NCBI RefSeq assembly: GCF_000190435.1
Contig: NC_015152.1
Location: 2,300,458 to 2,364,457 of the forward strand
Length of the DNA stretch: 64,000 bases
Origin: Sphaerochaeta globosa str. Buddy
GTDB lineage: Bacteria > Spirochaetota > Spirochaetia > Sphaerochaetales > Sphaerochaetaceae
Reading direction: 5' to 3'
Shown here: positions 3,565 to 64,000 of the stretch, one piece after another
How positions within the stretch are numbered: the stretch's first letter is position 1
Layout: the number at the start of each line of letters is the position of its first letter
The notes under the pieces: model-generated
Told to the model about the DNA's origin: nothing
The model's database searches: none
Seen by the model: only the letters and a program-made list of their open reading frames with translations
Position numbers and translations under genes: made by a program

Positions 3565-4503
3565 TCAGAAGAGGTCCAGTTGCAGATTCTTTTCTTTGGG
3601 TTTCCCCACTCCCTCCCGTGTCTTTTTTGCTTGATTGAGCAACCTCGGAAGGTCTTGGCTCTTCTTGATCACGAACACCCTGCTCTGATTGGCGAACTGC
3701 CTTGGCCAGAGGACACTATGGTTGTCCACACTCCCCTGATAGATGAATAGGTACTTTTTTTGCTCCAAGGCAAACGCCGCTTGCCTTACTGCACCACCAC
3801 CATCGCGGTCCTCCACCACCACCGAGGCATCGCTGAGGGCACTCATCAGGCGGTTGCGCAGCAAAAAATGCCATTTCTGGGTAACCGTTGCAGGCGAAAA
3901 CCTGCTGACCACCGCGCCTACCTTTGCAATTTCCTGCTGCAATGCACAGTGCTCGGGGGGATAGTAGGCATTGATCGGGGTGCCGATAACCGCTATGGTC
4001 GGATATCCTGCTGCCAAGGCAGCTTTATGAGCCACACCGTCAATACCCAAGGCCAAACCACTTGCCACCACATATCCGGCTTTTCCCAGTGCCTGGGCAC
4101 AGGAAAGAGCAAGCTGCTTTCCCTCCAAGGAAGGAGTGCGGGTTCCGATGACCGAAACCGAGTTTTGCTTCAGCAGCTGTACATTACCCTGCACATAAAG
4201 GAATCTCGGACGGAAGGCGAAAGAGTCAACCTGTTTCGGCCAGAGAGGGCTGTCCCAACCCAGAATGGAAACAGAAGTATCCATTGCTTCAAAGAGCGGG
4301 CGGATTTTGTAGTAAGCATCGCTGATTGCCGCAGCTTCCACACCCAGCAATTGTGCATAGGTCTGGGCATGCAAAACAAGGCTCTCACCGATGATCGAGC
4401 ATTCCAAAGCCTTCTCATACGCATAGGAAGCCTTAGCCTCGGAGCCATTGGCTGCCTTGAGCAAGGATTCATAATGCAAGGCCTGAAGCTGTATGCTGTC
4501 CAT
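3565..4503 (-). CDS. dprA: DNA processing protein DprA/Smf
   Basis: Rossmann-fold protein that in transformable bacteria loads RecA on incoming single-stranded DNA; in others its role is less clear. DprA motifs are VIGTRTPSLEGKQLA, VASGLALGIDGVAHKAAL and FLLRNRLMSALSD, spanning about residues 115-245 of 312. The last residues read LQLDLF, which matches the QLxLF consensus for binding the DNA polymerase sliding clamp; this is visible, its use is inference. The gene sits 51 bp upstream of alaS on the same strand. No Shine-Dalgarno sequence precedes ATG 4503; a TGT-GATACC box lies seven bases upstream, so the mRNA may be leaderless. Confidence 0.9.
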   Translation of the reverse strand: MDSIQLQALHYESLLKAANGSEAKASYAYEKALECSIIGESLVLHAQTYAQLLGVEAAAISDAYYKIRPLFEAMDTSVSILGWDSPLWPKQVDSFAFRPRFLYVQGNVQLLKQNSVSVIGTRTPSLEGKQLALSCAQALGKAGYVVASGLALGIDGVAHKAALAAGYPTIAVIGTPINAYYPPEHCALQQEIAKVGAVVSRFSPATVTQKWHFLLRNRLMSALSDASVVVEDRDGGGAVRQAAFALEQKKYLFIYQGSVDNHSVLWPRQFANQSRVFVIKKSQDLPRLLNQAKKTREGVGKPKEKNLQLDLF

Positions 4504-7262: not shown

Positions 7263-7609
7263 TCGTCCTCATAGAGCTCGTTCACCACAGCCCATGCATC
7301 ACCGTCACTTACGCGTAAGCCGCAAAGCAGTTCATATTGGTTGAGCAACGTCAAAAGATGCTTTTCCTTTACTTCAGCCGCACCCGAGAGGCCGATGACT
7401 GCTTTCAATTCCTCGCTGTCATCAGGAAGCTTTCTCACACGGTCAAATTCTTTAAGCATGTCTTTTTTCGTGTACTGGAAGAAGTTCGGAACCGAGAGAA
7501 TCAAAACAGGCATAAACTGCCTGCGGGCCAAGGCTTCAGCAGTAAGATTGATTTGCTCGTCTGTCGCATCAGGGCCCAATGCCTCATAGGCTGCTTTCAA
7601 TTCGTCCAT
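7259..7609 (-). CDS. Small hypothetical protein, first gene of the FNR-like regulator operon
   Basis: I do not recognise this 116-residue protein. It is soluble, acidic, rich in Leu and Glu, without cysteine pairs or a signal peptide, and is predicted mostly helical. A central LILSVPNFFQYTKKDMLKEFD stretch is its only aromatic patch. A strong Shine-Dalgarno sequence (AGGAGG) precedes ATG 7609, and a good promoter lies at 7630-7658, so it is probably a real gene. Its stop codon overlaps the start of the Crp/Fnr gene, suggesting translational coupling and a role linked to that regulator. Confidence 0.7.
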   Translation of the reverse strand: MDELKAAYEALGPDATDEQINLTAEALARRQFMPVLILSVPNFFQYTKKDMLKEFDRVRKLPDDSEELKAVIGLSGAAEVKEKHLLTLLNQYELLCGLRVSDGDAWAVVNELYEDD

Positions 7610-7629
7610 TCACCGTGCCTCCTTTCTCT

Positions 7630-7658
7630 ATTATACTCAACGTACAAGGAAAAAGCAA
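7630..7658 (-). promoter_or_regulatory. Promoter of the hypothetical/FNR-like operon
   Basis: On the minus strand TTGCTT (7658-7653) and a perfect TATAAT (7635-7630) are separated by 17 bp. The start codon is about 20 bases downstream, with AGGAGG between. Confidence 0.75.
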
Positions 7659-7860
7659 AATGAATGAATTTTGTTGCAAATATGCAATAAATCAGGTGTT
7701 TTTGCACTTTTTCCAATATTTATACATTTACACAGCAACAGGTTATGTCATTCTTGATAAAAATGTTAAAAAATTGATGCATATTTCTGTAATATTTGTT
7801 AATATTTGAGCAGGGGTTGGAATTTTTATTACACACTTCAACCACGAAGGGGAGGCAGTC
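7659..7860. other. AT-rich divergent intergenic region
   Basis: About 200 bp, strongly AT-rich, between the divergent hypothetical gene and rpiR. It holds repeated AATATTTG units (7791-7808) and a GGGGAGG ribosome site before rpiR. A promoter for the rpiR-dpp operon must lie here, but I cannot single out one -35/-10 pair. Confidence 0.5.
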
Positions 7861-8730
7861 ATGATCAGAGAGAGGATTCGGGAAAATCTTGGCAGCATGT
7901 CCCCGTCCTTTCAGGAAATCGGGCGTTGGCTTTTGGACAACTACGACGCTATCGGTTTTTCCTCAGTGCATGACCTCAGTAAAACCATCGGAGTCAGCAA
8001 TGCTTCCTTGGTTCGCTATACCCAGGCCCTCGGCTTTAAGGGATACAAGCAGTTCAGGGAAGCAGTTCAGGAAGAGGTGAAAACAAAGCTTCACCCCGAC
8101 TCGGCGGTCACCCTCAATGAACTGGATCTGCTGCCGGTCAAGAAACAGTTGCAAAGGCTTGCTGACAACGAAATCAACAACCTAAGTAAAACGCTGAAGG
8201 ACATCAGCGTACCCTCGCTGCTCGAAATGGTTGAAGGAGTTTTTTCCAGCAATCGAGTTTTCATCAGCGGCTTCGGCGTCAGCAAGAACATCATGCAGAT
8301 TTTTGAGTATGCCTTGACTTGTCTGCAAATCAAAGATGTGCATGGCATTACCGGTTCCATCAGCGACTATAGTCCCAAGCTTCGCAATATCACCGTCAAT
8401 GACAGCCTTTTCATCCTGACCATGCCTCCCTACTCCCCCGAGGCCATCCATGTAGCCACACAAGCTAAAAAACAGGGTGCGCAAGTCTTTTTATTCACTG
8501 ATTCAGCAAACTGCCCGATCTACCCCATTGCAAAGGCCGTGGTTCGTTGCGCAAACAACTCACTGCTGCTCACCAACTCCTATGTGGGTATGATTGCAGT
8601 CATCCAGGTATTCATCAACATGCTTCTGCTCTCCAGCAAAGGCAGCCTCATAACCCATATGAAGGAAATTTATCATTCAGAACAACAGGGCTACTCATTC
8701 CTGAAAGCCCAGAAGGAAGGCTTATTGTGA
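7861..8730 (+). CDS. RpiR/MurR family transcriptional regulator
   Basis: Regulator with an N-terminal HTH_6 domain (about residues 1-80; IGRWLLDNYDAIGFSSVHDLSKTIGVSNASLVRYTQ) and a C-terminal SIS sugar-phosphate-binding domain (about residues 120-260; VFISGFGVSKNIMQIFE, LTMPPYSPEAIHVATQAKKQGA). Family members sense phosphosugars; MurR, for example, senses MurNAc-6-P. It is the first gene of a co-directional run that encodes a D-aminopeptidase and a peptide importer, so it probably regulates that operon. GGGGAGG precedes ATG 7861. Its TGA stop overlaps the next start as GTGA. The actual ligand is unknown. Confidence 0.88.
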   Translation: MIRERIRENLGSMSPSFQEIGRWLLDNYDAIGFSSVHDLSKTIGVSNASLVRYTQALGFKGYKQFREAVQEEVKTKLHPDSAVTLNELDLLPVKKQLQRLADNEINNLSKTLKDISVPSLLEMVEGVFSSNRVFISGFGVSKNIMQIFEYALTCLQIKDVHGITGSISDYSPKLRNITVNDSLFILTMPPYSPEAIHVATQAKKQGAQVFLFTDSANCPIYPIAKAVVRCANNSLLLTNSYVGMIAVIQVFINMLLLSSKGSLITHMKEIYHSEQQGYSFLKAQKEGLL

Positions 8731-9548
8731 AGATATTTATTTCAACAGACATGGAAGGCATCGAAGGCATCTCTTCTTGGAATGAGATGACCACCAAGGA
8801 AGCTTGGTGTGCAGGTCTTTTGAAACAGGAACTTACCTATGTAATCTCAACGCTCCTGAAGAACGCTGATATCCAGGAAATCTGTATCTGCGATTCCCAC
8901 AGCCGGGGAGAGAACCTGCTGTATGGTTCATTCGGTGATGAACGGGTCACCCATGTGAAGGGCTATCCACGTCGCAATTACATGATGGAAGGCTTGGATG
9001 AGAGCTTTGATGCCGTATTCTTGCTGGGCTACCATGCAAGCATCGGAACACTGAACGGTGGCATGGACCACTCCTACAGCTCATCGTGCATCTACCGGGT
9101 GCGCCTCAATGGGAAGGAAGTGGGGGAAGTGGAGATCAATGCCTATTATGCGGGCTTGTTCGGTGTTCCTATCGCCCTCATCAGCGGCGATGACATTCTT
9201 GAAGAACAAATGAAAGAGTTCCTGCCGGTCCCCTATGTACGGACCAAGGAAGGTATGGGCCGCTATGCTGCCAAAATGTACAGCCCCGAGCGGGTGCAGA
9301 AAGCCTTTGAGTCACAGGTGCAGGCGTTCCTTAAGCAAGATGACTTTGAGGTGAAACGTCTAGAGGGCGAGGTAACCCTGGAAGTGGATTTGGCTACGAC
9401 TGTCATTGCCGATGCCGTTTCCATAGTCCCGGGCATCACGCGCCTCGACGGCAGGACTGTGCAGTACAAGAGCAGCAACTACACCGATATTTTCCACATG
9501 ATCCTGACCATTGCCATGCTTGGTGGCAAATTCGCCCAATACACATAA
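8727..9548 (+). CDS. D-aminopeptidase, M55 family (DppA-like)
   Basis: Zinc peptidase that removes N-terminal D-amino acids from short peptides, named after Bacillus DppA. The metal ligands of family M55 are visible: DMEG near the N-terminus, DSH around residue 60, GYHA around 105, and EINA around 135. Length (about 273 residues) is normal. Translation probably starts at GTG 8727, which overlaps the rpiR stop codon, giving the family's usual VKIFISTDMEG start; an upstream extension would run through rpiR. Placement directly before a Dpp-type importer suggests trimming of imported D-Ala-containing peptides, such as peptidoglycan stem fragments (inference). Confidence 0.88.
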   Translation: MKIFISTDMEGIEGISSWNEMTTKEAWCAGLLKQELTYVISTLLKNADIQEICICDSHSRGENLLYGSFGDERVTHVKGYPRRNYMMEGLDESFDAVFLLGYHASIGTLNGGMDHSYSSSCIYRVRLNGKEVGEVEINAYYAGLFGVPIALISGDDILEEQMKEFLPVPYVRTKEGMGRYAAKMYSPERVQKAFESQVQAFLKQDDFEVKRLEGEVTLEVDLATTVIADAVSIVPGITRLDGRTVQYKSSNYTDIFHMILTIAMLGGKFAQYT

Positions 9549-61910: not shown

Positions 61911-63194
61911 ATGCAGAACGCACTTACTAAAGAAATAAACACAACCAATCTTCCCACCAAGGAAGGACGCTTCGGAGAGTTTGGAGGTTCGTATATCCCT
62001 CCCCAATTGCAAGCAGTTATGGACGAGATCACCCAAGCCTATGAGCAGATAGTCCAAGACCCGGCATTCCTGAATGAACTCTCAGACCTCCAAAAACACT
62101 ATGTCGGCCGCCCTTCGCCGGTCTACCATGCGAAGCGTCTGTCCGATGCAGTTGGTGGAGCTCAGATTTACCTTAAGCGGGAAGACCTGAACCATACCGG
62201 AGCCCATAAGATCAACCACTGCATCGGAGAGGTGCTGCTCGCCAAAAAACTGGGCAAGAAAAAAGTAATTGCTGAGACAGGCGCCGGTCAACACGGTGTT
62301 GCACTCGCCACCGCCGCTGCATTGATGGGTCTGGAGTGTGACATTTACATGGGAGCGGTTGACATTAAGAAAGAGGCTCCAAATGTAAGCCGGATGAAAA
62401 TCCTCGGTGCTACCGTAGTCGAGGTAACCAGAGGGACCAAAACGCTCAAGGATGCCGTTGATGCAGCCTTTGAAGCCTATCTCCAAGACCCTGTAACCCA
62501 GATTTACTGCATCGGCTCGGTAGTTGGTCCCCATCCCTTCCCCATGATGGTCCGTGATTTCCAAAGTGTGGTTGGCATAGAAGCAAGAAAGCAGATTCAG
62601 GAGATGACCGGCTCCCTCCCTGATGCAATCGTGGCTTGTGTCGGCGGAGGTTCAAATGCCATGGGCATTTTCAGTGCCTTCCTCGATGACAAACTGGTCA
62701 AGCTCTATGGGGTTGAACCGGCCGGAAGAGGCTTGGACACTCCCGATCATGCAGCAACCATCACCAAGGGTAGTGTTGGCATTCTACATGGATTCAAGAG
62801 TCTGCTCCTCCAGGACGAAAAGGGAGAAGCCTTGCCGGTCTATTCAATTGCCAGTGGTCTCGATTACCCGGGTGTTGGACCACAACACAGCTACCTGCAC
62901 AGCATTGGCCGCGTTATATACGATAGTGCTACCGACCGAGAGGCGGTAGAAGCTTTCTATGGTTTGAGCAGGATGGAGGGCATTATCCCGGCTCTTGAAT
63001 CCAGCCATGCAGTAGCCCATGCCATTAAGCTGGCTCAGAAAATGAGTAAGGATGAGGTCATTTTAGTCAACCTTTCAGGAAGGGGGGACAAGGACATAGA
63101 CTTTGTCATGGAGCACTATCCTTTGGTGGAGTATGAACCGCAGGAAGGTGGTGATGGATTTGAGGAGTTCCTGGCACATATCAAGCAGAAGTAA
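61911..63194 (+). CDS. trpB: Tryptophan synthase beta chain, stand-alone
   Basis: PLP enzyme that condenses indole with serine to give tryptophan. It has the TrpB1 signatures [15 protein letters not shown], the PLP-Lys region [27 protein letters not shown], the phosphate loop [10 protein letters not shown] and [14 protein letters not shown]. About 427 residues from ATG 61911 (AAGGAG nine bases upstream), with an N-terminal extension of some 20 residues and a longer C-terminus than E. coli TrpB. No trpA or other trp gene is in the window, and a terminator follows, so it may serve indole salvage. Confidence 0.93.
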
Positions 63195-63218: not shown

Positions 63219-63248
63219 AATGGCTGTTACAATGGTGTAGCAGCCATT
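63219..63248 (+). terminator. Terminator of trpB
   Basis: AATGGCTGTTACA pairs with TGTAGCAGCCATT (one wobble pair) across a four-base loop, followed by TCTGTTTATT. It separates trpB from the CRISPR array. Confidence 0.82.
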
Positions 63249-63273: not shown

Positions 63274-64000
63274 ATAAAAATTTGCCGCTGAATTTTGTTA
63301 AGATAGACCTACCCAGATGTCTGGAGGGTTATATACCCCGTTGGGGATGACCGCTGATTTTTGTTAAGATAGACCAGAAATGGCCGTGTGGAGATCAACA
63401 ACATCGTTGGGGATGACCGCTGATTTTTGTTAAGATTGACCTTGCCGCACCGATTGACGCGAAGCACGCCAGTTGGGGATGACCGCTGATTTTTGTTAAG
63501 ATTGACCATCCATAGTGGATGCCCTTCCTGTTATGCCGTTGGGGATGACCGCTGATTTTTGTTAAGATTGACCGAGCTTTCGGAGGCCAGGACAGCCCTC
63601 AAGGTTGGGGATGACCGCTGATTTTTGTTAAGATTGACCATTCCGGCCTACCAGCCGCTCTTACTTGCGGTTGGGGATGACCGCTGATTTTTGTTAAGAT
63701 TGACCCCACGTCGAAGGGATTGCCCGTCTCGGTGGGTTGGGGATGACCGCTGATTTTTGTTAAGATTGACCCTTCCTTGTCTGCCATCAGTCGTGTGGCT
63801 TGTTGGGGATGACCGCTGATTTTTGTTAAGATTGACCAATCCTACCTCCGATTATACACGATTGATTGTTGGGGATGACCGCTGATTTTTGTTAAGATTG
63901 ACCCTATAGAACGTTGGATGCTGAGTTTGGTTTGTTGGGGATGACCGCTGATTTTTGTTAAGATTGACCTACTTTCGCTATAGTCGGGCTACCGCCTAGG
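63274..64000 (+). CRISPR. CRISPR array, 36-bp repeats and 30-bp spacers, continues past window
   Basis: Eleven repeats start every 66 bases from 63274 to 63934. The intact repeat begins GTTGGGGATGACCGCTGA and ends TTTTTGTTAAGATTGACC. All eleven spacers visible are 30 bp; base 64000 is the first base of the next repeat. The first repeat (63274-63309) is degenerate in its first 11 positions, and the first two have AGATAGACC instead of AGATTGACC. The 36/30 layout and GTT start fit type II. Each repeat contains TG-T-TAAGAT, an extended -10 motif five bases before its end. No cas gene or leader is visible in the window. Confidence 0.97.

What the first reader, a model, noticed from the sequence alone, without database searches (positions are those of the whole stretch)
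63274..64000. CRISPR repeats each carry an extended -10 promoter, and the degenerate first repeat keeps only that half
Repeat positions 23-31 read TGTTAAGAT, i.e. TGn followed by a TATAAT-like hexamer, ending five bases before the spacer. Transcription would then start in the first bases of each spacer, as shown for type II-C arrays of Neisseria and Campylobacter, giving short crRNAs without repeat processing. The first repeat has lost its 5' part (mismatches at positions 8, 10 and 11 and no clear match before) but keeps the promoter. That is what selection would leave if the first repeat only needs to start transcription and not pair with a tracrRNA. This also predicts left-to-right transcription.
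Basis: partly seen in the sequence, partly recalled or inferred. Interest (0 to 1): 0.75.

Follow-up and report, generated by a model that had tools for sequence, protein, structure and literature searches.

The report
Type II-C CRISPR array with repeat promoters
This is the upstream end of an ordinary Cas9 (type II-C) bacterial immune array whose repeats each appear to carry their own small promoter and whose oldest repeat has decayed except for the promoter side; both features are already published, the promoter position for this very repeat sequence.

Summary
The window ends inside a 43-repeat array (36-nt repeats, 30-nt spacers). Past the window edge lie a tracrRNA on the same strand, then cas2, cas1 and a 1179-aa Cas9 on the opposite strand: a type II-C locus. 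TGTTAAGAT sits at repeat positions 23-31. The first repeat is unrecognisable at positions 1-11 and kept at 12-36, so it keeps more than the promoter; its "mismatch" at 32 is the ancestral base. In 20 spirochaete II-C arrays with a degenerate first repeat, mismatches are 117/360 in the 5' half, 0/180 in the -10 element and 12/180 in the rest of the 3' half. This is known biology. Pearson 2015 lists this exact repeat (Sphaerochaeta globus), notes its shifted promoter, and reports that II-C arrays degenerate in the proximal repeat. Feussner 2025 shows mutations cluster in the first 15 nt of the first repeat and says it must keep its promoter. What remains open is whether the 5-nt shift gives longer guides. 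Transcription was not measured. Interest is low.

The parts
63219..63248 (+). Intrinsic-terminator-like hairpin (13-bp stem, 4-nt loop, then TCTGTTTATT) between trpB and the array; would insulate the array from read-through
   Evidence: z = -4.6, 0 of 200 shuffles; kept in sister species L151 with a compensatory stem change
63274..63309 (+). First (transcription-proximal, oldest) repeat: positions 1-11 unrecognisable, 12-36 kept
   Evidence: 19 of 20 degenerate first repeats of spirochaete II-C arrays have more mismatches in the 5' half
63296..63304 (+). Extended -10-like element TGTTAAGAT in the first repeat (repeat positions 23-31)
63340..63375 (+). Second repeat; differs from the later consensus only by A at position 32 (ancestral base); its -10-like element is at 63362-63370
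63406..64000 (+). Repeats 3-11 of 43, identical, with 30-nt spacers; the array runs to G000:2366539, about 2.1 kb past the window

Best explanation
This is the upstream end of a type II-C CRISPR-Cas array. Each repeat carries a sigma-70 extended -10 element near its 3' end, so each spacer is transcribed from the repeat before it (inferred). The crRNA is completed by the 5' part of the repeat after the spacer, which pairs with the tracrRNA encoded just beyond the array (pairing computed). New spacers enter at the far end, next to tracrRNA and cas2 (established for other II-C systems; here inferred from perfect last repeats and ancestral bases at the left end). The first repeat is therefore the oldest. 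It needs only to start transcription of spacer 1, and its 5' part, which would only produce a spacerless extraneous crRNA, has drifted.
For: Cas9 matches TIGR01865 at 515 bits and Cas1 matches type II Cas1, with no csn2 or cas4 alongside. The tracrRNA lies at L008 3672-3754 (+): TTGACT-17-TATGAT, anti-repeat ATCTTAACAAAAACCAGCGATTATCTCTAAT, terminator hairpin. Duplex energy with the tracrRNA is -40.0 for the consensus repeat and -26.2 for the first repeat; for positions 1-18 it is -21.2 against -8.9. Over 20 degenerate first repeats of spirochaete II-C arrays, mismatches are 117/360 in positions 1-18, 0/180 in the 9-nt -10 element and 12/180 in the rest of 19-36 after removing ancestral bases (p = 2e-4). 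Intact last repeats are perfect copies. In the same first repeat of a sister species (L151), 4 of 11 bases differ in positions 1-11 and 1 of 25 in 12-36. Literature: PMC4607530, PMC12080349, PMC7038990.
Against: No RNA data for this organism. The -10 hexamer TAAGAT matches TATAAT at 4 of 6 bases and no -35 is evident. The kept part is 25 nt, so promoter-specific retention is not resolved in this promoter register: 0/45 in the promoter against 2/45 elsewhere in the 3' half, p = 0.25. Positions and arrays in the test are not fully independent.
Confidence: 0.85

Rival explanations
1. The 5' part of the first repeat was actively selected to be lost, to stop an extraneous crRNA made by read-through from trpB (ecrRNA suppression, Feussner et al. 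2025).
For: Predicted pairing of positions 1-18 with the tracrRNA falls from -21.2 to -8.9 kcal/mol. A terminator upstream gives a second barrier, as in PMC12080349.
Against: Positions 1-11 differ between two sister species at 4/11, while the 78 nt upstream differ at 12/78; this fits drift and needs no positive selection. Feussner et al. could not show positive selection either.
Confidence: 0.3
2. The 3' part of the repeat is conserved because it pairs with the long anti-repeat of the tracrRNA for RNase III processing, and the promoter-like letters are incidental.
For: The anti-repeat is complementary to TTTTTGTTAAGAT and follows the repeat in relatives.
Against: The first repeat loses the Cas9-proximal pairing part yet keeps the 3' part, the reverse of what pairing alone would protect. 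A -10-like element recurs in diverse II-C repeats at either of two registers.
Confidence: 0.1
3. The first repeat is simply an old leader-distal repeat decaying without regard to function.
For: Oldest repeats decay in most CRISPR types. Ancestral bases at 32 show that the left end is old.
Against: The decay is one-sided: 117 mismatches against 12 between halves, and none in the -10 element of 20 arrays.
Confidence: 0.1

Closest known systems
Sphaerochaeta globus (globosa) type II-C CRISPR-Cas, Pearson et al. 2015, PMC4607530
   Same: Identical 36-nt repeat, Cas9 of 1179 aa and Cas1 of 300 aa; Cas2 is listed as 108 aa, which fits a later start in the 135-aa ORF here. The paper notes a putative sigma-70 promoter moved a few bases 5' in this repeat, and degeneration of the proximal repeat in II-C systems.
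   Different: Nothing of substance; this is very likely the same locus.
Type II-C extra repeat / extraneous crRNA, Feussner et al. 2025, PMC12080349
   Same: First repeat mutated mainly in its first 15 nt, with its promoter function to be kept; acquisition at the last repeat; upstream terminators in some loci.
   Different: Their text centres on suppression of the extraneous crRNA and mentions promoter retention only as an explanation in the discussion.
Repeat-borne promoters of Neisseria, Campylobacter and Clostridium cellulolyticum (PMC7038990 and works cited there)
   Same: Extended -10 in the 3' end of each repeat; array transcribed against the cas operon.
   Different: There the element is flush with the spacer (last nine bases) and C. 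cellulolyticum guides are 23-26 nt; here it ends 5 nt earlier.

Membership tests
Type II-C CRISPR-Cas | Cas9 gene next to the array | tested here: met
   P0001, TIGR01865, 514.8 bits, cut-off 100
Type II-C CRISPR-Cas | Only cas9, cas1 and cas2; no csn2 or cas4 | tested here: met
   The ORFs flanking the trio are trpB on one side and a short-chain dehydrogenase-like ORF and transporter ORFs on the other (read by eye); cas hits
Type II-C CRISPR-Cas | tracrRNA with an anti-repeat to the repeat | tested here: met
   L008 3672-3754, duplex -40.0 kcal/mol
Type II-C CRISPR-Cas | Array transcribed against the cas operon | tested here: met
   Direction from tracrRNA complementarity, array + and cas -; not from RNA data
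Type II-C with repeat promoters | -10 element at the 3' side of each repeat | tested here: met
   TGTTAAGAT at 23-31
Type II-C with repeat promoters | crRNA 5' ends starting in the spacers | not testable with these tools
   Needs dRNA-seq
Type II-C acquisition polarity | New spacers added at the last repeat | tested here: inconclusive
   Indirect only: ancestral bases and decay at the first repeat, identical repeats at the far end

The most novel reading that the evidence does not exclude
In the Sphaerochaeta clade the repeat promoter sits 5 nt further from the spacer than in Neisseria, Campylobacter and Treponema-type II-C arrays, so crRNAs would start near spacer base 2 and carry guides of about 29 nt instead of about 24, unless they are trimmed.
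Probability: 0.4. Interest if true: 0.3.

Novelty: already known. Interest (0 to 1): 0.15.

Why it matters
It confirms, with relatives, a published picture of how type II-C arrays work without a leader promoter: transcription starts in each repeat, memory grows at the far end, and the oldest repeat survives as a promoter. It also marks Sphaerochaeta as a good place to test whether promoter position sets guide length.

Tried and rejected
(1) A hairpin GGCAA..TTGCC joining the upstream DNA and repeat 1 looked like the guide-sequestering hairpins of Feussner 2025, but 22% of shuffles fold as well, and by eye it is absent from the orthologous L151 end; rejected as chance. (2) I first read mismatches at positions 32-33 in L008 and L039 as decay just past the promoter, which gave p = 0.011 for promoter-specific sparing in this register. 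Sister species show they are ancestral bases, and the corrected test is not significant for this register. (3) No spacer matched the phage collection, so no PAM check of direction was possible. (4) Rfam found nothing at the locus, tracrRNA included. (5) A peptide-pattern scan of genome contigs with Cas9 found no relatives; whole-genome search did. (6) The first structure string counted on the array-end hairpin was mistyped; one search is the valid count. (7) First-repeat matches of 17-20 mismatches are chance extensions and were replaced by the next repeat.

Full report
The window lies in a single-contig genome of 3,316,466 bases at 2300458-2364457. The same repeat, with Cas9 of 1179 aa and Cas1 of 300 aa, is listed for Sphaerochaeta globus in Table 1 of PMC4607530, so the organism is very likely Sphaerochaeta globosa.

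Surroundings. To the left is trpB, ending near 63194, then a hairpin with a 13-bp stem and a T-rich tail at 63219-63248. To the right of the array (L008 coordinates; window = L008 + 62542) is a tracrRNA on the + strand at about 3672-3754: promoter TTGACT-17-TATGAT, anti-repeat ATCTTAACAAAAACCAGCGATTATCTCTAAT, and a terminator hairpin followed by a run of U. Then come cas2, cas1 and cas9 on the - strand. Cas9 scores 514.8 bits to TIGR01865, and Cas1 matches the type II Cas1 family.

The promoter. TGTTAAGAT at 23-31 has TG, n, and a hexamer agreeing with TATAAT at 4 of 6 bases. An equal or better match is seen in 1.7% of shuffles of this repeat. Across 13 distinct spirochaete II-C repeats the combined p is 7e-11; these repeats are related, so this overstates independence. 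The element occurs in two registers: positions 28-36, flush with the spacer (Treponema-type and several Sphaerochaetaceae loci), and positions 23-31 (this genome, L039, L040, L050, L094, L150, L151). The flush register is the one described for Neisseria and Clostridium cellulolyticum, with 23-26 nt guides in the latter (PMC7038990). The shift in this very repeat was noted in PMC4607530. With a start about 7 nt after the hexamer, the start would fall at spacer base 2.

The first repeat. Repeat 1 keeps positions 12-36 and has lost 1-11 (9 of 11 mismatched), plus position 19. The A at 32 is ancestral: repeat 2 has it, the arrays of two sister species have it as consensus, and the first repeat of L039 has it although L039's consensus is now GATGAACC. 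The sister-species array L151 lies at the same place after trpB and its hairpin. Its first repeat differs from ours at 4 of 11 bases in positions 1-11 and 1 of 25 in 12-36; the 78 nt upstream differ at 12. So the lost part drifts like the DNA between genes while the rest is held.

Relatives. I searched whole genomes of the family, the phylum and the Treponema-type family for Cas9 relatives (808 genomes counted by the tool up) and fetched loci. Of 23 non-redundant arrays with an uncut first repeat, 18 have a degenerate first repeat; two more came. Intact last repeats are perfect. Over the 20 degenerate first repeats: 117 of 360 mismatched in positions 1-18, 0 of 180 in the 9-nt -10 element, 12 of 180 in the rest of 19-36, after removing ancestral bases (p = 2e-4; 0.0018 without the near-duplicate L084). 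In the 23-31 register alone the promoter is not separable from the rest of the 3' half (0/45 against 2/45, p = 0.25). Related arrays and neighbouring positions are not independent, so these p values are descriptive.

Literature. PMC4607530 states that degeneration is common in the proximal repeat of II-C systems. PMC12080349 (Feussner 2025) analysed 364 II-C arrays: 60% of first repeats are mutated against 5% of others, mostly in the first 15 nt; acquisition is at the last repeat; [quoted passage not shown] The finding is a correct reading of a known pattern.

Not shown: transcription start sites, guide length, and whether RNase III still trims. The tracrRNA anti-repeat pairs with almost the whole consensus repeat at -40.0 kcal/mol, so processing is possible.

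Noticed in passing
loci L079-L094 and L125-L141, first 60 nt after the last repeat: In Treponema-type II-C arrays a terminator-like hairpin starts at the first base after the last repeat, i.e. at the presumed acquisition end, with a T-run after it. Over 21 sequences 17 of 19 pairs show changes on both sides and 81.7% of cells pair, far above shuffles and slid controls. It is not present in this form in the window's own array. One literature search did not turn up a description.
   Followed up: partly
L040 (G083) 7273-8853 and L049 (G019) 40-378: The array is flipped relative to tracrRNA and cas genes: tracrRNA and array are divergent, with the first repeat beside the tracrRNA promoter, and the first repeat is not degenerate.
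   Followed up: partly
L039, L042, L043 and window tracrRNA L008 3672-3754: The tracrRNA anti-repeat follows the changing repeat of each lineage, and all share the AAGAC tail after it. Rfam has no hit to the window's own tracrRNA.
   Followed up: partly
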